Positions 4,686-39,493 of a stretch of DNA of 39,694 nt are shown here, one piece after another. Origin of the DNA: Candidatus Berkelbacteria bacterium (lineage in GTDB: Bacteria > Patescibacteriota > UBA1384 > DTJR01). The stretch's first letter is position 1. Every line of letters begins with the position of its first letter. A program made the position numbers and the translations under genes. A model generated the notes under the pieces. The model made no database searches, was not told the origin of the DNA, and saw only the letters and a program-made list of their open reading frames with translations. The stretch covers positions 83,840 through 123,533 of the forward strand of contig JAOUGE010000001.1 of the NCBI GenBank assembly GCA_029865605.1, in the 5' to 3' direction.

Positions 4686-5813
4686 ATGGCAAGAAATATG
4701 ACTTTGATTGTTATCCCAACTTATAACGAGAGAGAAAACCTCACCCGGCTTTTATCGGCAATCAAAAAACAAAACATCGGCGCTGATGTTTTAGTGGTTG
4801 ATGATAATTCGCCTGACGGAACAGGTAAGATTGCCCGAAAGATTTCCCAAAAAGAAAAACGGGTTGGTGTTTTGCACCGCAAGAAAAAAGAGGGTTTAGG
4901 CAAAGCTTATGTAGCCGGTTTTAAATGGGGGATGAAGAAGGGGTATGAGAAGTTGATTTCGATGGATGCCGATTTTTCCCATCCGGTCGAGGCATTGAGG
5001 AGGATGATTAAGCTTTGCTCGGCTGATACGGTTGTGACCGGTTCAAGATACGTCAAGGGTGGAAAAATCGTCGGCTGGTCGTGGGATAGATATGTAAACA
5101 GCTCCACGGCAAACCTTATCACCCGGCTTCTTCTTTCCATCAAGACAAAAGATGCAACCGCCGGTTTTAAATGCTATCCTGTCGAGTTCTTTGAAAAGAT
5201 CAGTCTAGATAAAATTCGCGCCTCGGGCTACGCCTTTCAGGTTGAGATGATTATGCTAGCCCAGGATAATGGATTTAAATCTGTTGAAACACCGATAACT
5301 TTCGTTGATCGCAAAGCGGGAGAGTCGAAAATCCAAGGGGAGCTGGTAAAAAGCGCCAAACTCGTCTTTTCCTTGGCGGCAGAGAGAGAGGCAACTAGGC
5401 AATTTGTAAAATTCTGCATTGTCGGGGCGATAAATACTCTAGTTGACTGGCTTTTTTTCTTTTTGGCTAGGACATCTTTGACCGCGGCTTTAGGAACAAG
5501 AAATCTGCAGACATTAAAACAGATCGCCAAGGCGATTTCTTTTATTATTTCCGCGACATCGAGTTACATTATGAACCGGAAATGGACTTTCCGCTCGACA
5601 AATCCAAGAGTGGCGAGAGAGCTTATCCAGTTTTTTATCGTTGCAACTGGCGGTTTGATTATTAACTCGCTTGTTTTTTATTTAATAACTGCTCAAGTAG
5701 GCTGGCGTGATATCTTCGGGCTCGTCATCGCAACAGCCGCTGCAACCCTGTGGAATTTTGTTCTCAATAAAAAGTGGACCTTCAAAAACAGAACTCGCTT
5801 GACGCTTGAATAG
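4686..5813 (+). CDS. GT2 dolichyl-phosphate mannosyltransferase-like domain fused to GtrA-like membrane domain
   Basis: IVIPTYNERENL and VVDDNSPDGTG (GT2/DPM1-like); C-terminal FVKFCIVGAINTLVDW...NFVLNKKWTFK (GtrA). Confidence 0.9.
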   Translation: MARNMTLIVIPTYNERENLTRLLSAIKKQNIGADVLVVDDNSPDGTGKIARKISQKEKRVGVLHRKKKEGLGKAYVAGFKWGMKKGYEKLISMDADFSHPVEALRRMIKLCSADTVVTGSRYVKGGKIVGWSWDRYVNSSTANLITRLLLSIKTKDATAGFKCYPVEFFEKISLDKIRASGYAFQVEMIMLAQDNGFKSVETPITFVDRKAGESKIQGELVKSAKLVFSLAAEREATRQFVKFCIVGAINTLVDWLFFFLARTSLTAALGTRNLQTLKQIAKAISFIISATSSYIMNRKWTFRSTNPRVARELIQFFIVATGGLIINSLVFYLITAQVGWRDIFGLVIATAAATLWNFVLNKKWTFKNRTRLTLE

Positions 5814-5864
5814 AGCAGGGCTATATTTAAACTAAGTACATTGACGTTGATGTGGATTTGCTTG

Positions 5865-6709
5865 CCCTGTTAGAGTGTTCTAACGGGGACGAGGAGGTGG
5901 TCGCTCCGCGAAGGATAACCCCTCCATGGATCACGAGCCTCTGATAGCCGTGGCACTGTGGCGAGACGTAAGTGGGTCGCCCCACTAAGGGGCTGAACTG
6001 TCACTGACGTTTCTGGTGGCGGGGTGGTGTCGGAAGGGTGGCGGCCCGTCACTTGGGCCGCCACCCCGATCGAGCTAGTCTCGCATGGGAAGGAGGGGTG
6101 AGGACCTATGCGAAGACTTCTAGCGTGCGTCGAGCAGCAGAAGGCGAACCGAACGACGGCTGTGGCGTTCTCCGCCGACACGTCCTGAAGCGGTCGAGGA
6201 CAACCTGGCGCGCCCCTCTCCCGCGTGGACTGGGGGCGCGCCGCGCAATCATCGCTACTTTCCTGCCGTACCTCTCGCTGTGGCTATTGTCGACCCCCCG
6301 ACGAGCGCCTAGCTGCGGTGAGGGGCAGTACCCTGCCCGACTCTTGCCCCAGAGTCGGGCAGGGTACGATCATCTTTGGCCAGCCGGGGCGGTCATGGGG
6401 TTGGTCTGGCGGTGAGGTCGGAGCGCTCCCGCCATTGGCGGGAGCGCCGCACTCATTTATGGCCAGCACAGCAGGGCCGGGCACCAGCGCCAGAGAGCGC
6501 GGAGCAAAGCAGGACCGCAAGGCGGACGGGATTCCCGAACGGGGCCCTTGTCCGCCGCTCTTATCCCATATCATCCGCAGTCATCTTACATCTGGTCCTG
6601 TGGCACGCCCAATCCCTTGGGGCGAGCGCTGCAGGACATCCTCCCCGGTCAGCCATCGGCTGACCGTCACGGGCCCAACCCTATCGGTTGGGCCTCGTTG
6701 TTTTAGTTG
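5865..6709 (+). ncRNA. Candidate large structured non-coding RNA in a GC-rich island
   Basis: No consistent ORF. Perfect or near-perfect hairpins at 5865-5888, 6036-6066 (12 bp), 6207-6242 (10 bp), 6328-6367 (17 bp), 6423-6447 (11 bp), 6646-6666 (9 bp) and 6672-6694 (9 bp, followed by a T-rich tract). Confidence 0.55.
6672..6709 (+). terminator. Possible intrinsic terminator at the 3' end of the GC-rich island
   Basis: GGCCCAACC-CTATC-GGTTGGGCC followed by TCGTTGTTTTAGTT. Confidence 0.5.
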
Positions 6710-6774
6710 AAATTACAAGAAAAAACCGGCTTCTCGCCGATTCTCTATCTTGTTTTTAACTTACAAATAACAGG

Positions 6775-7161
6775 CTACTGTCTGTACTCGCACCCTTCTT
6801 TGGTTTCGAGACATCTCCAAAACTTGATCACTTGGGCCAAGTCAAGGGCGTTTAGAATACTCGTGTCCGTTCCAGCTTCGCTGACTAAGTCGTAATCTTT
6901 ATTGTTTTCCCTCCAATGAGCGATCAGCCCGTTGATGTCTAGAACATTAACTATTCCGTCATCGGTAGTATCGCCTTTAATTCTCGGCTCGGCCGGCACC
7001 GGCGGAAAATCAGCTGATGCAGTCTCCGGCGCTGGCGGGACGGGCGGCGAGGAGACATCGGCGGTTGGCTGATTTGACCAGACCAAGAAACTCAAAATAG
7101 CTATTAGAGCTACTACTACAAAAGTTGAAGCAAGGGTTATGAAAAAGGTCTTGATATTCAT
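6775..7161 (-). CDS. Membrane-anchored protein with dockerin-like repeats
   Basis: Start MNIKTFF, TM segment, Pro-rich linker, then GDTTDDGIVNVLDINGLIAHW and TDTSILNALDLAQVIKFW (dockerin-like calcium-binding pattern). Confidence 0.6.
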   Translation of the reverse strand: MNIKTFFITLASTFVVVALIAILSFLVWSNQPTADVSSPPVPPAPETASADFPPVPAEPRIKGDTTDDGIVNVLDINGLIAHWRENNKDYDLVSEAGTDTSILNALDLAQVIKFWRCLETKEGCEYRQ

Positions 7162-7168
7162 CTTCAGC

Positions 7169-7987
7169 TTAAATTTTACCCCGCGCGATCTTAAAGTAAA
7201 GACTGACGCCACCTTCGGTTGGCAAAGAATAGGCCTTTATATTTATTGGCCTGCCACAATCACCCAGGTGGATCTGAACATCTCTCTGCTGCGGAATATC
7301 GTAAGCTTCCAGTTCAAGATATGTCTTGAGAAAATTCTTGACTACAGACGTCGGTAAGCTAGTTATTTTTTCTCTTGGTCTTGAGTGAAAAATATCAACT
7401 ATTTCGCCTTGGCCTAGCGAGAAGTGAATATTATCGATGTCATTGATTATGACATGTTTTATAATTGTTCCCAGGATTCTTCCCTCGCCGTTTTCTTTTA
7501 GTCTGATTTGGGTGGGTAAAATCGCATCAAGTTTTTTTGAGGAAGCTTGAGTTTCTAAGCGGGCGATTTCCAGCATTCTCTCCAAGATTTTCTTTTTTAT
7601 TTTGTCTTTCTCGACTCGGGCCATAATCGAGAGTGGCTTAAAGACAAAGGGAGATTTCTTGGGGGCGGTTTTGTCTGGCAATACCGTTTCTGCTTTTCCT
7701 CTCATAAGCTTAAAGCGGAGTTCTTTTGCTGGCCGAAATTTAATCTGGCTTTGTTCAACCAAGAGCCGTGGCGCCTTTGTCCCAATGGATTTTATGGTAT
7801 GGCTCTTCATTGTAATAAGGTAAAACGAGCCGAAATCACCGATTATGACCCGCTTTCTTGTTTTAAGATTTTTGGCAAGCAATTCTTCAAATTCCTCAAG
7901 CACCTCATTTGTTTTTTTAATCGAAAGATCGACCAGCGGTGAAACTTTTTTGGCGATTTGGTCTTTATTGGTAAAACTTCTGCTCAT
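7169..7987 (-). CDS. HU/IHF-like DNA-binding domain fused to GspE/PilB-like N-domain lacking an ATPase domain
   Basis: N-term TNKDQIAKKVSPLVDLSIKKTNEVLEEFEELLAKNLKTRKRVIIGDFGSF resembles HU/IHF. C-term IIKHVIINDIDNIHFSLGQGEIVDIFHSRP...LKTYLELEAYDIPQQRDVQIHLGDCGRPINIKAYSLPTEGGVSLYFKI aligns by eye with the T2SSE/PilB segment ASDIHIEP...DGRI...DIRVSTLPTxxGExVVxRI. Confidence 0.6.
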   Translation of the reverse strand: MSRSFTNKDQIAKKVSPLVDLSIKKTNEVLEEFEELLAKNLKTRKRVIIGDFGSFYLITMKSHTIKSIGTKAPRLLVEQSQIKFRPAKELRFKLMRGKAETVLPDKTAPKKSPFVFKPLSIMARVEKDKIKKKILERMLEIARLETQASSKKLDAILPTQIRLKENGEGRILGTIIKHVIINDIDNIHFSLGQGEIVDIFHSRPREKITSLPTSVVKNFLKTYLELEAYDIPQQRDVQIHLGDCGRPINIKAYSLPTEGGVSLYFKIARGKI

Positions 7988-8223: not shown

Positions 8224-9654
8224 GTGGCTTTATATCGCAAATATCGACCCAAGGTTTTTTCTGAGGTTGTCGGTCAGGATCACGTTGTTTCAACCTTAGA
8301 AAAAGCCCTCAAGGCGGGCCGCATTGCCCATGCCTATCTTTTTTGCGGGCCGCGCGGCGTGGGCAAAACGACCGTAGCTCGGCTTTTGGCCAAGGCGGTA
8401 AATTGTCTTGATAAAAATCCGCCTTGCGGCAAATGTAAAAACTGCGAGGATATTGCCTTGGGCAGGTTTATTGACCTTATAGAAATAGATGCCGCCTCAA
8501 ACCGTGGCATAGATGAAATAAGGGATTTACGCGAAAAGATTAAATTTGCTCCCAGCGTCGGCCGCAAGAAAGTTTATATTATTGATGAAGTTCATATGTT
8601 AACCCGCGAAGCTTTTAACGCTCTTCTAAAAACCCTTGAGGAACCTCCGGCACACAGCATTTTTGTTTTTGCCACAACTGAGGTGAATAAGCTTCCCGAA
8701 ACTGTTATCTCGCGCTGCCAAAGGTTTGATTTTCGCTTGGGCGATGAGGCACTAGTCTCCAACAATATTAAAAAGATTGCTAACTCCGAAGGGATAAAAC
8801 TGGATGAAGAAATTCTAAGCTTAGTTGCCAAATCAAGCGGCGGCTCCTATCGCGACTCCTTATCAATGTTTGATCAGCTTTTGCCCCATTTAAGCTCGGG
8901 AAAAACCGATCTGAAGCAGGCTTCAAAAATCCTCAATTTAAGTGGCCTGGATGAAGCTTTGCACTTCGTTGGTCTTTTGAAGTCAGCGGATATTCCTGCG
9001 GTCATCGGGTATATCGACGAATTAAGCATGAAGGGGACCGATTTCGAGCAATTTACCGGAGCGCTGGTGCGGCTTTTTCGCGCCGAGCTGATTGAAGCGG
9101 TTATAAGCGGCTTAGAATGCAGCTGGCTGAGATTTGCCCTCGAGCGCCTGATTGAAGCGGTTTCCCGGAGCAAAGTATCGCCGATTGGTTCACTGCCTTT
9201 GGAATTAGCGGCAATTGACATCTGCCAGAACTCGAGCAACAATCAACCTAAAGCAGGGCGATCGGATGAGGGCGGAGCCCAGAGCGAGGCACTAAGGGAG
9301 TTGGATTCGATCAAAAAACCGGCTGGCAATCCTGGACCTATCGCCTCGCCTCAGATAGCTCTTTCTCCTGAAGGGCGATTGGCGATAGTTGAAGCGGTGC
9401 GCAGCAAAAACAAGCCCTTAGGGGCACTTTTGGCCGCTGCCGCTTGGAGGGTAGAAGAAGGAAAAATTGTCTTGACGGTGGAATACAAGCTTTACCAAAA
9501 CAAGATAATGAGCAAAGATAATTTAAAGTTAGTTTCGGAGGAAGCGGAAAAGGTATTGGGAAAAACAGTTTTGTTCGGTTGTGTGGTGGAGAAAGTTTCT
9601 GAAGGATTGAGCGCAGATATGGTTGGGGAAATAGAAGATGTCTTTGGCGGTTAA
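8224..9654 (+). CDS. dnaX: DNA polymerase III subunit gamma/tau
   Basis: ALYRKYRPKVFSEVVGQDHVVSTLEKAL, GPRGVGKTTVARLLAK, Cys-rich zinc module CLDKNPPCGKCKNC, IIDEVHMLTREAFNALLKTLEEPP; GTG start. Confidence 0.97.
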   Translation: MALYRKYRPKVFSEVVGQDHVVSTLEKALKAGRIAHAYLFCGPRGVGKTTVARLLAKAVNCLDKNPPCGKCKNCEDIALGRFIDLIEIDAASNRGIDEIRDLREKIKFAPSVGRKKVYIIDEVHMLTREAFNALLKTLEEPPAHSIFVFATTEVNKLPETVISRCQRFDFRLGDEALVSNNIKKIANSEGIKLDEEILSLVAKSSGGSYRDSLSMFDQLLPHLSSGKTDLKQASKILNLSGLDEALHFVGLLKSADIPAVIGYIDELSMKGTDFEQFTGALVRLFRAELIEAVISGLECSWLRFALERLIEAVSRSKVSPIGSLPLELAAIDICQNSSNNQPKAGRSDEGGAQSEALRELDSIKKPAGNPGPIASPQIALSPEGRLAIVEAVRSKNKPLGALLAAAAWRVEEGKIVLTVEYKLYQNKIMSKDNLKLVSEEAEKVLGKTVLFGCVVEKVSEGLSADMVGEIEDVFGG

Positions 9655-13154: not shown

Positions 13155-13754
13155 ATGGCTAAGCGACTTGACCCAAATCTTGAGTTCTATCGAGAGCTCG
13201 ATAGCTCTCATCGGAAAAAGAGCTTTTGTAGTTGCACGACTCTGGGCATTTTCTTCCTGGTAGTATTAATTATCCTTGAGCTTTCTCTGTTTCTGCTGGC
13301 GAGAGGGTTTAGGTCCTCCCCCAATTTAGATCAGCCGGCCTTGGCTCCGGATCTGCCCCAGCAGCTTTCAACCGTTGAGCTTGAAGATGGTTATTTCCGG
13401 CTGGTGATAAGCGAGGGGAGCCTTTGTTCTAGCTTAGCCCAAGTGAAAGGGTTCAGGAATCTCTCCTGCCAGATTTCCGATGAAGGGCTGGTAGTCGCCG
13501 GCAAATTCGGCTTTGTCTTCCCCTCCAACTCTCGGCTGGTTTTAAACCCGAGAATTGACAAGGGAAGATTAGCGTTTGATTTAGCAAGCTTCTCGATTGG
13601 CAAAATCAGCCTGCCAAGCGGTTGGGCCTTAGGGTTGTCAATGGCTGTGGAAGAAGCTATTTATAAAAATGCGCCGGATCTGGATAAAGCCGAGGTTGAA
13701 GAAATCGAAGTCACGGACGGAATCGTGGCCGTTAAAATGAAGAAAGCGGTTTAG
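13155..13754 (+). CDS. Single-TM hypothetical protein
   Basis: 199 aa ORF 2 nt after murJ; one TM helix (LGIFFLVVLIILELSLFLLA) and extracytoplasmic domain. Confidence 0.75.
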   Translation: MAKRLDPNLEFYRELDSSHRKKSFCSCTTLGIFFLVVLIILELSLFLLARGFRSSPNLDQPALAPDLPQQLSTVELEDGYFRLVISEGSLCSSLAQVKGFRNLSCQISDEGLVVAGKFGFVFPSNSRLVLNPRIDKGRLAFDLASFSIGKISLPSGWALGLSMAVEEAIYKNAPDLDKAEVEEIEVTDGIVAVKMKKAV

Positions 13755-13775
13755 CCAGCGCCTGGCAAAGCAACT

Positions 13776-15668
13776 ATGACTGAAAACATTCGCAATTTTT
13801 GCATCATATCTCACATTGATCATGGGAAGTCGACTTTAGCCGACAGGTTTTTGGAATTGACCAAAACTGTAGAGAAAAGAAAAATGCATGATCAGATTTT
13901 GGATTCGATGGATTTAGAGAGAGAAAAGGGAATTACGATTAAGCTCCAACCCGTCCGCATGCTATGGCATGCGGACGTGAATAACGAATCTAGAATTAGG
14001 AATAATGGAGTTAAAGATTCTGATTCATCATTCGTAATTCATAATTCTAAATTCTCAAATTCAGAATTGTTTATTCTGAATTTGATTGACACCCCCGGCC
14101 ATGTTGATTTTTCTTATGAGGTTTCCCGCTCCCTCGCTGCGGTTGAGGGTGCGATTTTATTAGTTGACGCGACTCAAGGCGTTCAGGCTCAAACCCTGGC
14201 TAACTTGGAACTGGCTAGGCACTCGGGTTTGACAATTATTCCCGTTGTTAACAAAATTGACCTGCCCGAAGCTAATCCGGATGAAGTGGCTCTGGAGATT
14301 TCCGAAATTTTAAACGTTCCCATCGAAGATGTTTTATTTGTTTCGGCTAAGACTGGTGAGGGAGTAAACGGCTTGATAGGGGAAGTTATAAAGAGGATTC
14401 CTCCGCCCAGGCCTGGTACTCACCCTTACCCTAGAGCTTTAGTTTTCGACTCATTCTATGACGACTACAGAGGAGTGGTTGTCTATGTCAGGGTTTTTGA
14501 CGGAAAGATCAAGAGGGGAGATAAAATATTTTTCTTCCAGCAGAACAAACAATCTTGTGCAAGCGAGGTCGGCACAGTTGAGCTGGGACTTAAAGCCCAG
14601 GAAGAAATAGGGGCGGGCGAGATAGGGTATATCGTCACTGCCTTAAAAGATGTCTCCGAGGCGCGGGTAGGAGAGACGGTCACGACGCTGAATAATGAAG
14701 AACGAATTAAGAATAATGGAAAAATTCATAATGGCCCCCCTATCCCCAGCTACGCTGGCCTGCCATCATTCGCGATTCATGGCTCAACTTTCGTGCCACT
14801 ACCAGGCTATGGAGAGCCAAACCCTTTTGTTTTTGCTGAGCTTTATACCTCGGGCAAGGAATACGGTCGCCTGCGCGAAGCGCTTTTCAAACTCAAGCTA
14901 TCTGATTCATCAATTACTTTTGTTCCGACCACTTCCTCGGCTTTCGGCTTTGGCTTTAAATGCGGTTTCCTCGGCCTTTTGCACCTTGAAGTGGTTAAGG
15001 AGAGGCTTGAGCGTGAGCATAACTTGGACTTAATCGTTACCACCCCGACGGTGGATTATAAAGTAAAAGAAGGAAGATATGAAGAGCCCTGGGCAAAAGT
15101 GGAGTTGATTTTACCCCAGAAATACCTGGGTCGGGTGATTGAGCTAATGGAATCGAGAAGGGGATTGCAGAGAAACATCAAGCACCTTGAGACGAAGATC
15201 CTAGTTGAATACGAAATGCCTCTGTCTGAAGTAATTATTGATTTTTACGATCAAGTAAAATCCTTAACCCAGGGCTATGGTTCTCTCAATTACGAAATTA
15301 TTGGTTATCGAGAAAGCGATCTTGTCCAACTTGATTTTTTAATTGCTGGGGAAAAGATTGAGGCCTTCTCAAGGCTCGTATATCGGCCAAGCAGCCAAAG
15401 CATTGCTAAAAATATGGTTGGGAGAATGAAACAAGTCATCCCCCGCCAAGCTTTTGAGGTAAAGATCCAGGCGACGATAGGAACACGAATAGTTGCCTCG
15501 GAGAGGTTGGCGCCTTTTAGGAAAGACGTGACTGAAAAACTCTACGGTGGTGATGTTACTCGAAAAAAGAAATTATTAGAAAAACAGAAGAAAGGCAAGA
15601 AGAAAATGGCTCAAATAGGCAAAGTTTCCGTGCCGACCGATGTTTTTATTAAACTGCTAAGGTACTAG
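13776..15668 (+). CDS. lepA: Elongation factor 4 (LepA) with two in-frame insertions
   Basis: NFCIISHIDHGKSTLADR, DTPGHVDFSYEVSRSLAAVEGA, KIDLPEANPDEV, SSAFGFGFKCGFLGLLHLEV, KMAQIGKVSVP. Extra residues lie before DTPGH and after VGETVTTL. Confidence 0.97.
   Translation: MTENIRNFCIISHIDHGKSTLADRFLELTKTVEKRKMHDQILDSMDLEREKGITIKLQPVRMLWHADVNNESRIRNNGVKDSDSSFVIHNSKFSNSELFILNLIDTPGHVDFSYEVSRSLAAVEGAILLVDATQGVQAQTLANLELARHSGLTIIPVVNKIDLPEANPDEVALEISEILNVPIEDVLFVSAKTGEGVNGLIGEVIKRIPPPRPGTHPYPRALVFDSFYDDYRGVVVYVRVFDGKIKRGDKIFFFQQNKQSCASEVGTVELGLKAQEEIGAGEIGYIVTALKDVSEARVGETVTTLNNEERIKNNGKIHNGPPIPSYAGLPSFAIHGSTFVPLPGYGEPNPFVFAELYTSGKEYGRLREALFKLKLSDSSITFVPTTSSAFGFGFKCGFLGLLHLEVVKERLEREHNLDLIVTTPTVDYKVKEGRYEEPWAKVELILPQKYLGRVIELMESRRGLQRNIKHLETKILVEYEMPLSEVIIDFYDQVKSLTQGYGSLNYEIIGYRESDLVQLDFLIAGEKIEAFSRLVYRPSSQSIAKNMVGRMKQVIPRQAFEVKIQATIGTRIVASERLAPFRKDVTEKLYGGDVTRKKKLLEKQKKGKKKMAQIGKVSVPTDVFIKLLRY
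13952..14084 (+). repeat. Palindromic in-frame insert in lepA (three consecutive hairpins)
   Basis: CGTCCGCATGC-TATG-GCATGCGGACG (13952-13977); imperfect IR GAATCTAGAATTAGGAATAATGGA / TCATTCGTAATTCATAATTCTAAATTC (~13985-14055); CAAATTCAGAAT-TGTTT-ATTCTGAATTTG (14056-14084). Confidence 0.7.
14689..14800 (+). repeat. Second, more degenerate in-frame insert in lepA
   Basis: GAACGAATTAAGAATAATGGA ... CCATCATTCGCGATTCATGG partial inverted repeat; roughly 27 aa longer here than E. coli LepA by recalled alignment. Confidence 0.5.
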
Positions 15669-15722: not shown

Positions 15723-16148
15723 CTAGTTGCGGAGGTCGAAGATGAAGAAGGTCCCCTCCGCCTTTCCGGTGATGCTCTCCCGGTCGAGCATGAGGAACGG
15801 TCCTCTCTGGCGGGCCGCTTTGATGGCAATCCTGAGGATCTTCAGGGCTTCGTCGTCGCTGACATCGTCTGGGTGAAGCAGGCGCGGCTCTGCCTGTCTG
15901 TTGAAGCGTGCCCGCTCCTTGACGAGGGCGCAAACCCTCAGGGGGCGGCGGCGGGTATCGACGATCTCCACGCCGAGGTCCTTCGCCACAGCAGCCGTGA
16001 TCTCCGCCCTCTCCTTCCGTGATGGCTTCCAGCCGGGGAAGCGGCCGATGTATGCGGCCGTGACTTGTCGGACTACCCTCCGGAAATCAGGGTGGTTCTT
16101 GATATACCCGAACAGCTTCCTCGATACCCTTTCCGCAAGGCATTGCAT
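15723..16148 (-). CDS. Hypothetical protein in GC-rich island
   Basis: 141 aa from ATG at 16148 (MQCLAERVSRKLFGYIKN...) preceded by AAGGAGG; upstream ORF extension is probably not translated. Confidence 0.65.
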   Translation of the reverse strand: MQCLAERVSRKLFGYIKNHPDFRRVVRQVTAAYIGRFPGWKPSRKERAEITAAVAKDLGVEIVDTRRRPLRVCALVKERARFNRQAEPRLLHPDDVSDDEALKILRIAIKAARQRGPFLMLDRESITGKAEGTFFIFDLRN

Positions 16149-16245
16149 CGGCCATTCCTCCTTGGCATTTCCCTGAGACCCGGGTTTAAAACTCGGTCGC
16201 AAGGTTATTCCAAACTATCACTTGAGATCAAAGAAATCAATATCT

Positions 16246-20202: not shown

Positions 20203-21099
20203 CTAATGCTCGCACAGCTCTCGCGGAAGCTCCGTCACAAGGCAGTGAATTCCTGCGAAAACGAACGCGGGATAGCACTCTAAGGGGATGTCGGTGGTTA
20301 CGACCCGATCTTCTCCGACGATCCCGGCGAGAAGCTCCTCTACGTCATCTCCGGACGTGGCCAGTATCTTGCCATTTGGCAGTTGGCAGACACCGACCGA
20401 AAACGGGACAGCGAGTCGGCGCGGTGTGTGGACGGCGATACTCAAGTGCTCGCATCTGCGCCGAATCTCGTCTGCCGACTCCGCAGGGCTGATCGGCGCT
20501 GATTGTGTACCCGAGTGGTACTGCGGGTCGACTACAAGGTGTAGGTTGCCCTTGCTGTCTTCCACCAGCCCAGCTGTCCTGTCGAGGTGATCGTTGAGCG
20601 ACAGCCCCTCGGGGCTGCGACAGATCGGGTTGGGTAAGGGTTGAGTCTTGATCCCTGACTCGATGAGGATCATTGCGTCGGCAGCCGAGTCGATGAACTC
20701 CCCGTTTTCGTAACCGATGGTGTGGCTGACTAGGGCGGTTTTCGCCCGGCTAAGCACAGCCCCGCCTTCCCCAAGTCGCGATGTAGCTAACCGGGTGTTC
20801 CCGATCCGTTGGTCCTTCTGGGGGAATAGCCGTGAGTTGAACAGCGCGAGCCCGGGAAATGCGACTCCCAGGTCTCTCGGGAAGGCGCGGGACTCCACTG
20901 AGTTCCTTAGGACGATCGAGGCCTGGCAAAGGTTGACCACCTCTTTCAGGCCGGGATCATCTTCGTACCAGCTGAGGTTGATGACGGAGAACTCCATTCC
21001 GGCGCGTGCAATTGAACGGGCCACCGAGAGGTATTCTGCCCGGAGCCTCTCTCCAGTTCTCCCTTGCGTGTCTTTCGCGGGTTCGAAGGAGGAGGTCAT
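20203..21099 (-). CDS. Pentein-superfamily (agmatine deiminase/amidinotransferase-like) enzyme, GC-rich island
   Basis: ESRAFPRDLGVAF resembles SWxRDxGP; NDHLDRTAGLVEDSKG resembles the GHxD catalytic segment; FVFAGIHCLVTELPRE resembles the C-terminal GxIHCxT cysteine motif. Confidence 0.5.
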   Translation of the reverse strand: MTSSFEPAKDTQGRTGERLRAEYLSVARSIARAGMEFSVINLSWYEDDPGLKEVVNLCQASIVLRNSVESRAFPRDLGVAFPGLALFNSRLFPQKDQRIGNTRLATSRLGEGGAVLSRAKTALVSHTIGYENGEFIDSAADAMILIESGIKTQPLPNPICRSPEGLSLNDHLDRTAGLVEDSKGNLHLVVDPQYHSGTQSAPISPAESADEIRRRCEHLSIAVHTPRRLAVPFSVGVCQLPNGKILATSGDDVEELLAGIVGEDRVVTTDIPLECYPAFVFAGIHCLVTELPRELCEH

Positions 21100-29930: not shown

Positions 29931-30275
29931 CTAGCCCTCGGGGTGATGCGTGTCGGTCTGGTGTAGTTCGGGGTGGTCGTAGGCGACAATCACCTGGTAG
30001 ACGCCTTCGCCGTGATGAACGACGCCTGGCGGAATCAGGATTGCCGTTCCTTGTGCCACCTCGTGTCGTACTCCATCCAGCCAGATAGCCCCGCTTCCGT
30101 CGAGGACATAGTACGTCTCAGTCATCGCCCTGTGGAAGTGAGGCTTCGCGTCAGAGATGGTCGTACGATGCAGACCGAGACACGCCTCGTCCTTGGCGGT
30201 GAAGAAGCGCTCGCTTTGACCGCAAGGACAGGGCTCAACGTGGTCAGGCTCCCGCCTGACGATTGCCTGGGCCAT
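29931..30275 (-). CDS. Cupin-domain protein (GC-rich island)
   Basis: PHFHRAMTETYYVLDGSGAIWLDGVRHEVAQGTAILIPPGVVHHGEG is a cupin double motif; ATG at 30275 after GAAGGAGGTG. Confidence 0.85.
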   Translation of the reverse strand: MAQAIVRREPDHVEPCPCGQSERFFTAKDEACLGLHRTTISDAKPHFHRAMTETYYVLDGSGAIWLDGVRHEVAQGTAILIPPGVVHHGEGVYQVIVAYDHPELHQTDTHHPEG

Positions 30276-37383: not shown

Positions 37384-37421
37384 GCCCCAGCCAAATATAA
37401 GTTACCCTCTTTAAAACCCAA

Positions 37422-37442
37422 AAGACGCCTTGGGGGCGTCTT
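37422..37442 (-). terminator. Terminator of the four-gene GC-rich operon
   Basis: Minus strand AAGACGCC-CCCAA-GGCGTCTT followed by TTGGGTTTT. Confidence 0.6.
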
Positions 37443-37501
37443 GGGGTAAGTCTCGGGGGTTCGAGCGGGGTAAAACCACGTCGGGACTAGGGGCGTGTTT
37501 A

Positions 37502-37861
37502 TCACACGCCGGGGATTGAGAGCTGGGCGGCGGTGGGGAGAGTGTCCAGCTGCTCGAGCGGTATGTCGACTCCGGCCTTGGCTGCCAGCTTCTGGAGATG
37601 TGCAAGAAGGGCGTGTCCCATCTTGCGGTTTGGGTCTGAAGGGTCCGGGTGGGCAGGGATGATTCGGCACAGCCGCTGTGCCGTTCCTCTGACCCATCCA
37701 TCCCCCTTGTCGTTGTTGAGCGGCTCGCACTTGCAGAGATCCCAGGCAACGTCGCCGTGAGACCGCAGCATCTCCTGCTCCAGTAGCTCGACCCAAGAGG
37801 CGGCCTGCAATGCGAGTTCGTCTAGCAGCCACCCTAGCGAGTGCTTCGGCCAGGTGCTCAT
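37502..37861 (-). CDS. Hypothetical protein (GC-rich operon gene 4)
   Basis: MSTWPKHSLGWLLDELALQAASWVELLEQEML...; ATG 4 nt after the stop of the upstream gene, with GAGGAGGG SD. Confidence 0.65.
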   Translation of the reverse strand: MSTWPKHSLGWLLDELALQAASWVELLEQEMLRSHGDVAWDLCKCEPLNNDKGDGWVRGTAQRLCRIIPAHPDPSDPNRKMGHALLAHLQKLAAKAGVDIPLEQLDTLPTAAQLSIPGV

Positions 37862-37865
37862 TCCC

Positions 37866-38609
37866 TTAGCCCTCCTCTTCATCGGGGACGATGAGCTGTG
37901 TGACTGTGCCGGGTGTCGGTCCATCCTCGGCGAATGGGTCGTCACTGTCTGCGGGGCTGATGAGCCCGAGCTTGATCAGCTCGCCGACGATCTGCTCTGC
38001 TGCAGCAGTTGGGTTCTCGACGGTGAGCTGTTGGGCGGTGTAGTCGACGAGCTGGTCTTGGTCGGCACCGGCCTCGGCTAGCTCTTCGAGATAGGTCGCG
38101 ATGGTCTCGTCGAGCTCTCTGTCGTCGCCCACTTCTGCGAGTAGCTCGTCGAGCGCAGTTACCAGCGGGTCCTTGCTGCACAGTATATGCTTGATCGTCT
38201 CGAGTGCCTCGACTGCGGAGATGGTGAGGGGGAAGCCACCGTACCTGATATGGAGGCGCGAGTGGTTTCCGGGGAGGACCTCGTTGACGACCAGCCAGTA
38301 GGTCCGCCCGACGGTGGAGCGCTCGTAGCCCCTGATTGCCTCTGCGAGTTTCGCCTCGGGGCAGTTGTGGTGCTCGCAGCGATCAGCGGAGATACCGAGC
38401 GATTCCACCGCGCGGGTTAGCTGACTGACTGTCTCCAAAGCTTGCTTGCCAGGGCGTTCTACGGTCTTCTCGCCCATGAGGTAGAGAACAGAGTCTTCGT
38501 CTTGCTGATCCTTGCCGGGGACGAGTAGGATGATTCGTATGTCATCCTCGCCAGCGAGAAGCTTATCAAGCTCTCGTTGCACGTCGGAGAACTCTAGGCA
38601 GAAGACCAC
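37866..38609 (-). CDS. Acidic hypothetical protein (GC-rich operon gene 3)
   Basis: 247 aa; GTG start 8 nt after AAGGAGGT. Confidence 0.65.
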   Translation of the reverse strand: MVFCLEFSDVQRELDKLLAGEDDIRIILLVPGKDQQDEDSVLYLMGEKTVERPGKQALETVSQLTRAVESLGISADRCEHHNCPEAKLAEAIRGYERSTVGRTYWLVVNEVLPGNHSRLHIRYGGFPLTISAVEALETIKHILCSKDPLVTALDELLAEVGDDRELDETIATYLEELAEAGADQDQLVDYTAQQLTVENPTAAAEQIVGELIKLGLISPADSDDPFAEDGPTPGTVTQLIVPDEEEG

Positions 38610-38637
38610 TTTGCCCTACCTCCTTCTTGGTGTGGGT

Positions 38638-39093
38638 TCAGTAGCGGACGAGCTCCGGTTCCTCGACGGTCTGCTGGATGCCGGGGCCGGGACGGAAACG
38701 GAGGTGCTGGCCGGCGCGCGGCATTTGGCCGTTGACCTTGAAGCCAGGCGGGATGAAGAGAAGGAAGTGCCCCGCTCTGACCCTTCTCACACCCTCGTCT
38801 TCTGCCTGCGCCGGTTGGATGCAGCCATAGAGAGCCGTGTTCCGACCGGCGAAGTGGCTCTCCGCACATACCTTGCAGATCTTGCGCCGGTCTCCCGGCT
38901 TCGCCGGGTCAGTTGGGTCGTCGGCGAAGCAGCCATCTGTTGCTCCGCACTTGGCGCAGATGATCGTACCGCCCCTGTGAAGTCTGCCTTCGCAGGCGGC
39001 GCAGAGGTTACCCTTCCCGGGGTTAGCGGAGAACATCATGTAACCCAATGGTACTTCGCAGTGGCAGTGGGTGCACTGTCTCGCCTTTCTCAT
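38638..39093 (-). CDS. Multi-zinc-ribbon-like hypothetical protein (GC-rich operon gene 2)
   Basis: MRKARQCTHCHCEVPLGY...LCAACEGRL...IICAKCGATDGC...KICKVCAESH; ATG after AAAGGAGGTCAACTG. Confidence 0.7.
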   Translation of the reverse strand: MRKARQCTHCHCEVPLGYMMFSANPGKGNLCAACEGRLHRGGTIICAKCGATDGCFADDPTDPAKPGDRRKICKVCAESHFAGRNTALYGCIQPAQAEDEGVRRVRAGHFLLFIPPGFKVNGQMPRAGQHLRFRPGPGIQQTVEEPELVRY

Positions 39094-39493
39094 CAGTTGA
39101 CCTCCTTTCGGGGCGTGGTCTGAAGCGCTTGGGACGGCCGGAGGCCGTCCTGGTCGGGTTGGGAGGACAGGGGCCTCGATCTCTGGGGTGCCGGGGGTCT
39201 TCAAACCAAGCGTTGCGTTCGTCGATTTGCTGGATGAGGCGGGTAATCTCGTCAGGACCGCCAAAGACGCCTGTGAATCCGCCGCAGACCCCTCGGTAGA
39301 GAAGACAGGTGTAGATACCCTGCCAGGGTCGCGTTCGTCGAAGCCACAACCTTGAATCGTTGAGCGTGTGGGAGCCGATATCATACTTCCACGGGTTGGT
39401 GGCGACGTAGATCTCGCCCCGGTACTCGATCAGCGCGGGCGTATCGTGGGAGAGATCGGACAGCCGGCGGATTGCTTTGGGGGCGATCTCCAT
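39023..39493 (-). CDS. Hypothetical protein (GC-rich operon gene 1)
   Basis: MEIAPKAIRRLSDLSHDTPALIEYRGEIYVATNPWKYDIG...; ATG after AAAGGAGGTGGCGA. The 3' end overlaps gene 2 by 71 nt, so the C-terminus is less certain. Confidence 0.55.
   Translation of the reverse strand: MEIAPKAIRRLSDLSHDTPALIEYRGEIYVATNPWKYDIGSHTLNDSRLWLRRTRPWQGIYTCLLYRGVCGGFTGVFGGPDEITRLIQQIDERNAWFEDPRHPRDRGPCPPNPTRTASGRPKRFRPRPERRSTDEKGETVHPLPLRSTIGLHDVLR

What the first reader, a model, noticed from the sequence alone, without database searches (positions are those of the whole stretch)
5865..6709. ~845-nt GC-rich, hairpin-dense island with no credible CDS: candidate large structured RNA
Seen directly: this island is far more GC-rich than its neighbours, has only mutually overlapping high-GC ORFs in several frames, and carries at least seven strong hairpins. 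These include GGGTGGCGGCCC/GGGCCGCCACCC (12 bp) and GTACCCTGCCCGACTCT/AGAGTCGGGCAGGGTAC (17 bp, 6-nt loop). The 5' edge is a 10-bp stem (CCCTGTTAGA-GTGT-TCTAACGGGG, with a G-U pair) leading into GACGAGGAGG..., and the 3' edge is a hairpin plus T-rich tract, consistent with a plus-strand RNA. I could not match it to rRNA, RNase P RNA, tmRNA or SRP RNA. Inference: it may be a large ornate RNA in the size range of OLE, ROOL or GOLLD, but of unknown class.
Basis: partly seen in the sequence, partly recalled or inferred. Interest (0 to 1): 0.78.

Follow-up and report, generated by a model that had tools for sequence, protein, structure and literature searches.

The report
Hairpin-array noncoding RNA beside HU gene
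A roughly 850-base stretch of a tiny, uncultivated bacterium's genome does not code for protein but appears to be its own transcript, a string of about eleven RNA hairpins, and look-alike units sit at the same place, next to a gene for a DNA-packaging (HU-type) protein, in the two held sister genera, so it is a good candidate for an undescribed RNA family.

Summary
Window 5865-6709 is about 64% GC (genome 45%), has no coding signal in any frame, folds 9 SD better than dinucleotide shuffles, and has 10 perfect hairpins of 9 bp or more (shuffles: mean 1.0, maximum 4). A sigma-70-like promoter (5799-5827) and a terminator (6671-6695) frame it on the + strand. No Rfam family matches. It is single-copy, and BLAST finds no relative in 55 genomes of its class or 380 of its phylum. 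Synteny does. In sister genus G003 the spot beside the same dockerin/HU gene pair holds a ~960-nt noncoding hairpin array with its own promoter and terminator. It shares an exact 15-mer with the window (E ~0.0015) placed directly after a matching hairpin, and the recurring unit "hairpin + GC(A/C)NTCAT(C/T)" (four copies in each). Sister genus G002 has a noncoding unit there too, and another downstream of dnaE, but their sequence homology is unproven. I read this as a family-restricted, fast-evolving hairpin-array ncRNA. Its most likely role is to present hairpins to a structure-specific binding protein, perhaps the adjacent HU-domain protein (works like E. coli naRNA4; inference only). It is not OLE, ROOL or GOLLD.

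The parts
5799..5827 (+). sigma-70-like promoter TTGACG-17-TATATT (overlaps the 3' end of the upstream glycosyltransferase gene)
   Evidence: counterparts at the syntenic loci
5835..6705 (+). proposed noncoding RNA gene (ends inferred from promoter and terminator)
5865..5888 (+). 5' hairpin, 10 bp
6036..6066 (+). hairpin, 12-13 bp
6081..6113 (+). hairpin, 9 bp, with purine-rich loop AAGGAGGGGTGAGGA
6206..6253 (+). module 1: 10-12 bp hairpin plus GCAATCATC
6242..6256 (+). 15-mer CGCGCAATCATCGCT identical in the G003 counterpart
6328..6374 (+). module 2: 17-bp hairpin plus ACGATCATC
6423..6457 (+). module 3: 11-12 bp hairpin plus GCACTCATT
6521..6585 (+). module 4: 10-bp hairpin, spacer of about 20 nt, GCAGTCATC
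6595..6637 (+). hairpin, 10 bp
6646..6666 (+). penultimate hairpin, 9 bp
6671..6705 (+). terminator hairpin and T-rich tail
6775..7212 (-). small gene with weak dockerin match, convergent with the RNA; constant neighbour in three genera
7169..7987 (-). HU-domain protein gene; constant neighbour

Best explanation
The island is the gene of a free-standing noncoding RNA of about 860-880 nt, transcribed on the + strand from about 5835 to about 6705. It is built as a string of about eleven strong hairpins. Its 3' half carries four repeats of a module: a 10-17 bp hairpin followed within a few nucleotides (about 20 in the fourth copy) by the unpaired motif GC(A/C)NTCAT(C/T). A penultimate hairpin and an intrinsic terminator close it. 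It belongs to a family-restricted, fast-evolving RNA locus linked to the HU-dockerin gene pair: hairpin number, module and position persist while almost all sequence turns over. Most likely mechanism (inference): the RNA presents repeated hairpins plus a short single-stranded tag to a structure-specific RNA-binding protein, the best candidate being the HU-domain protein encoded next door, so it would work like the HU-chaperoned nucleoid RNA naRNA4 of E. coli. Shown by computation: noncoding, structured, promoter/terminator framing, syntenic counterparts, shared 15-mer and module with G003. Inferred: transcription, protein partner, function. I put the RNA-gene part at about 0.65 and the HU-partner part at about 0.2.
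For: No coding signal in any frame. Fold z = -9.2; 10 hairpins of 9 bp or more against a shuffle mean of 1.0. Promoter 5799-5827 and terminator 6671-6695 on the same strand. The G003 counterpart (L241 1366-399, minus strand) is noncoding, fold z = -9.1, 11 hairpins of 9 bp or more, promoter TTGACA-16-TAGTAT and terminator on the same strand. It lies beside the same dockerin-HU pair; the two G003 contigs concerned overlap by 17 nt and the dockerin frame reads across. Exact 15-mer CGCGCAATCATCGCT shared by window 6242-6256 and G003, expected 0.0015 by chance; longest antisense word 11; in both it directly follows a GC-rich hairpin of different sequence. TCAT follows 4 of 14 G003 hairpins against 26 of 1215 other GC-rich, non-T-tailed hairpin flanks in these genomes, about 2e-4 by binomial. 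The motif occurs on the RNA strand only: 4 against 0 on the other strand. G002 has a noncoding element with a perfect TTGACA-16-TATAAT promoter beside the same dockerin and a second one, fold z = -7.25, downstream of dnaE. The gene on the far side of the RNA differs in all three genomes while the HU-dockerin side is constant.
Against: No transcript data exist here. Only one pair (window-G003) has significant sequence sharing; window-G002 and G003-G002 do not, and the G002 unit next to dockerin is weakly structured (z = -2.6, two hairpins of 9 bp or more). The module was first seen in the window after the fact; only its recurrence in G003 is an independent test. The minus strand folds nearly as well (z = -8.4), as expected of perfect hairpins. 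A DNA search and the module model find nothing convincing outside the family. Nothing links the RNA physically to HU, and the HU structure prediction failed (mean pLDDT 31).
Confidence: 0.55

Rival explanations
1. The array is a terminator array or transcription insulator between convergent genes: the hairpins stop read-through from both sides and the RNA itself has no role.
For: In three of four cases (window, G003, G002 dnaE side) the array lies between convergent genes; several hairpins score as terminators.
Against: Most hairpins lack a U-tract; the TCAT tag is not a feature of terminators here (3 of 86 T-rich tails); 600-960 nt is far more than termination needs; the units carry their own promoters.
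Confidence: 0.15
2. A DNA-level palindrome array or relic of a mobile element (REP/attC-like), in which the hairpins matter as DNA (recombination, protein binding) and transcription is incidental.
For: Perfect hairpins fold about as well on both strands; the genome contains many inserted GC-rich cassettes; the gene border is an insertion hot spot.
Against: No second copy in the genome; hairpins share no sequence with each other; the tag motif is on one strand only; promoter and terminator agree with that strand.
Confidence: 0.15
3. Decayed protein-coding cassette of the kind common in this genome.
For: Similar GC content and promoter/terminator framing to coding cassettes nearby; a coding cassette sits after the same upstream gene in G002.
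Against: No residual codon periodicity or codon usage in any frame; hairpin density far above that of any coding cassette.
Confidence: 0.05
4. Assembly chimera or contaminating sequence.
For: Abrupt change in GC.
Against: Matching unit at the same locus in an independent genome.
Confidence: 0.02

Closest known systems
naRNA4 / REP325 of Escherichia coli (HU-chaperoned nucleoid-associated RNA)
   Same: Noncoding RNA rich in hairpins; here the conserved neighbour gene encodes an HU-domain protein.
   Different: naRNA4 derives from a repetitive extragenic palindrome; this island is single-copy with hairpins of unrelated sequence; no binding data here; the adjacent HU protein is a larger fusion.
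OLE, ROOL and GOLLD large bacterial RNAs
   Same: Large bacterial noncoding RNAs (GOLLD often over 800 nt, PMC12286853), strong predicted structure.
   Different: No Rfam match; apparent beads-on-a-string array; sequence not conserved between genera; not shown to be near tRNA arrays or in a prophage.
Arrays of intrinsic terminators
   Same: GC-rich hairpins in series between convergent genes, a genuine terminator at the end.
   Different: Most hairpins lack U-tracts and carry a GC(A/C)NTCAT(C/T) tag instead; own promoter.

Membership tests
OLE / ROOL / GOLLD / raiA / HEARO and other Rfam large RNAs | Match to the family covariance model | tested here: not met
   cmscan at gathering score on the window and at E<=5 on 5700-6900 found none of them
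RNase P RNA | Match to bacterial RNase P model | tested here: not met
   No match in the island; the genome's RNase P RNA is on another contig
naRNA4-like HU-associated RNA | Transcribed hairpin-bearing noncoding RNA | tested here: inconclusive
   Hairpins and promoter/terminator framing present; transcription not observed
naRNA4-like HU-associated RNA | Encoded by repeated palindromes of one REP family | tested here: not met
   Single copy; hairpins unrelated in sequence
naRNA4-like HU-associated RNA | Binds HU | not testable with these tools
   Only genetic linkage to an HU-domain gene
Intrinsic terminator array | Each hairpin followed by a U-tract | tested here: not met
   Typical T-rich tails are confined to the last hairpin of the window and G003 units, apart from weak mid-array matches
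Protein-coding GC-rich cassette | Codon-position bias and an open frame with ribosome-binding site | tested here: not met

The most novel reading that the evidence does not exclude
A family-specific class of large, sequence-hypervariable hairpin-array RNAs that is genetically linked to an HU-domain protein plus a membrane-anchored dockerin-like protein and acts with them to organise or tether DNA: an RNA whose conserved trait is its array of hairpins rather than its sequence.
Probability: 0.15. Interest if true: 0.85.

Novelty: new variant of a known kind. Interest (0 to 1): 0.58.

Why it matters
If true, it adds an undescribed large noncoding RNA to a group of genome-reduced bacteria in which 850 noncoding bases are costly, and it is a case in which synteny and architecture, not sequence similarity, reveal an RNA family. 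Its constant neighbour, an HU-domain protein gene, makes a concrete and testable link to nucleoid-associated RNAs, for which naRNA4 of E. coli is the example found in the papers searched here.

Tried and rejected
Protein coding: rejected (PHROGs finds nothing for three of the island's ORFs; relatives of those ORFs sought in viral contigs, and of one of them in genome contigs, none found). Known RNA family: no Rfam match at gathering score or E<1; RNase P RNA is elsewhere in the genome. BLAST homologs in class, phylum, phages, plasmids: none; the three E 0.003-0.009 hits (L042-L044) lie in unrelated contexts. A 24-base pattern of the 5' stem in viral contigs: no match. nhmmer of the island against all DNA fetched by then: none. 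The idea that TCAT is simply this lineage's terminator tail: rejected, 3 of 86 T-rich tails and chance level in other hairpin flanks. Module model hits outside the family: the strongest phylum-wide ones were inspected and are isolated hairpins in unrelated contexts, one of them apparently on the antisense side of an RNase P RNA (the last from memory of the sequence); the class-wide ones (best E 0.06) were not inspected. MAFFT alignment of three candidates: not usable, anchors misaligned. AlphaFold of the HU protein from one sequence: unusable. A genome-contig scan with dnaX found no close relative, so the organism could not be named from it.

Full report
1. The observation. The island at 5865-6709 is about 64% GC in a genome of about 45% GC. 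It folds 9.2 standard deviations below dinucleotide shuffles on the + strand and 8.4 on the - strand. It has 10 perfect hairpins of 9 bp or more, where shuffles have on average 1.0 and at most 4. Among 156 GC-rich islands scored in pieces of the same genome and of sister genus G002 it has the highest density of such hairpins, 8.9 per kb, next 4.8.

2. It is not a gene for a protein. The same genome is full of other GC-rich cassettes that are protein-coding, with clear codon-position bias (spread 0.21-0.36), while this island has none (0.04). A codon-usage model trained on those cassettes scores about zero or below over nearly the whole island. The ORFs in it overlap on both strands, and the longest + strand ORF (6225-6710) runs through the terminator. 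Three of these ORFs have no PHROGs match, and no relatives of them were found.

3. It looks like its own transcription unit. TTGACG-17-TATATT lies at 5799-5827 and a hairpin plus T-rich tail at 6671-6705, both on the + strand. Promoter scans of this kind are weak evidence alone (5 found, 2.0 expected here); what counts is that the same framing recurs at the syntenic loci below.

4. Relatives. Sequence searches find nothing: not in 55 genomes of the class, 380 of the phylum, phages or plasmids, nor in Rfam. I therefore fetched nearly all of the window's genome (G000) and of sister genus G002, and a quarter of sister genus G003, and scanned for GC-rich noncoding stretches without using the island's sequence. 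The one G003 hit that resembles the window (1025 nt, 9 hairpins, 60% GC) turned out to begin directly beside the dockerin gene, the same neighbour as in the window. The HU gene is on another G003 contig, but the two contig ends overlap by 17 nt and the dockerin reading frame continues across, so the order is HU-dockerin-[island]-dnaE.

5. The G003 unit has the same anatomy. On the strand converging on dockerin it has TTGACA-16-TAGTAT (L241 1384-1357) and a terminator GGGCCGGAC..GTCCGGCCC GAGCTTTTTT (440-416); RNA length about 960 nt, fold z = -9.1, 11 hairpins of 9 bp or more.

6. Sequence link. The longest word shared by the two units on the RNA strand is CGCGCAATCATCGCT, 15 nt, expected 0.0015 times by chance; the antisense control gives 11. 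It sits directly after a GC-rich hairpin in both, and those hairpins differ in sequence while staying paired (GGCGCGCCCC/GGGGCGCGCC against GCGCGCCGAA/TTCGGCGCGC). The pattern (A/G)C(A/G)NTCAT(C/T) had already been noticed four times in the window, against 0-2 in 5000 shuffles (post hoc). In G003 four of its 14 hairpins are followed by TCAT(C/T). Elsewhere in these genomes TCAT follows 26 of 1215 GC-rich hairpin flanks without T-rich tails and 3 of 86 with them. By the binomial that is about 2e-4 for G003 alone. The motif is on the RNA strand only (4 against 0). This strand asymmetry is the best argument that the functional molecule is RNA and that the + strand is right.

7. Sister genus G002 is less clear. 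Beside the same HU-dockerin pair (L128 9459-10809) it has a noncoding 575-nt unit (8718-9292) with a perfect TTGACA-16-TATAAT promoter and a hairpin plus T-tract at its end, but it folds only moderately (z = -2.6) and has one module-like hairpin (GAAACGGCGC..GCGCCGTTTC TGCACTAATCAC). A second noncoding unit (L128 about 770-1625, z = -7.25) lies after dnaE, which is the other neighbour of the G003 unit, with three genes between the two. It has a hairpin followed by CGCCATCATC (weak module-model hit, E = 1.7). No shared word between G002 and the other two is significant. I treat G002 as probable by position, unproven by sequence.

8. A covariance model of the module (8 instances; these instances define it, so its perfect pairing is not independent evidence) found only G000 and G003 convincingly in the class. 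In 380 genomes of the phylum it found a few isolated hairpins in unrelated contexts. The RNA thus appears confined to this family, of which three genomes are held.

9. Mechanism. Most of the sequence is free to change while hairpin number, module and place persist. That is what one expects if the RNA is read by a protein that recognises hairpins rather than sequence. The constant neighbour encodes a protein with an N-terminal HU domain (Pfam PF00216, E = 1e-11) and an unassigned C-terminal part, followed by a small protein with a hydrophobic N-terminus and a weak dockerin match. HU binds structured RNA in E. coli, and HU-chaperoned naRNA4, encoded in REP325, takes part in nucleoid condensation (PMC6907758). 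The proposal that the island RNA works with the adjacent HU protein is therefore natural but rests on linkage alone.

10. Rivals. In three of four cases the array lies between convergent genes, as a terminator array or insulator would; yet most hairpin tails lack U-tracts, the TCAT tag is not a terminator feature here, and the units carry promoters. A DNA-level palindrome element is possible, but there is no second copy in G000 and the tag is strand-specific. Decay of a coding cassette is unlikely, because no codon periodicity remains and hairpins would have to arise in it. Assembly error is unlikely, given the syntenic counterpart.

11. Verdict. Observation confirmed; interpretation partly supported. 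New variant of a known kind (large bacterial noncoding RNA), function inferred only.

Noticed in passing
Own genome, outside the window: e.g. L068 11526-11720 and 11731-11950, L235 4165-4380, L070 5616, L086 7933; also L290-L295: At least 12 loci in the window's genome carry a GC-rich element of about 100-180 nt, nearly all directly after a tRNA gene. It holds an inverted copy of that tRNA's T-arm, a conserved core GAGGCGGGGTC..hairpin with AGCA loop..GTGACC, and a direct copy of the tRNA's 3' end. The core pattern occurs in 10 of 55 genomes of the class (control pattern 0), and its hairpin shows strong compensatory change: 97.5% of cells paired, 10 of 14 pairs changed on both sides, covariation score 0.76 against 0.20 in shuffles. 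Rfam found only tRNAs in L068, L065, L086. It looks like a tRNA-customised mini-element or tRNA-tail mimic and deserves its own study.
   Followed up: partly
window 15723-16202, 20203-21099, 29931-30275, 37400-39493 (all - strand): GC-rich (57-61%) protein-coding cassettes embedded in a 45% GC genome, several with a strong Shine-Dalgarno site and their own terminator. Most encode proteins without a Pfam or PHROGs family; one is a cupin. Many more such GC-rich islands are scattered through the genome.
   Followed up: partly
L006 2760-3700 (sister genus G002): Downstream of the same glycosyltransferase-GtrA gene that precedes the island in the window, G002 carries a different GC-rich cassette, of two short coding genes: this gene border looks like an insertion hot spot.
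   Followed up: partly
L102 about 101-825 (G002) and L065 about 13540-13900 (own genome): Further GC-rich stretches without coding signal that end in, or contain, strong hairpins; they lack the TCAT module and were not studied.
   Followed up: no
window 7169-7987 (-) and 6775-7212 (-): HU-domain protein with an unassigned C-terminal half, overlapping a small gene for a protein with a hydrophobic N-terminus and a weak dockerin match; the pair is conserved in the three held genera of the family. By eye the C-terminal half recalls the N-terminal domain of type IV pilus/secretion ATPases; Pfam does not support this.
   Followed up: partly
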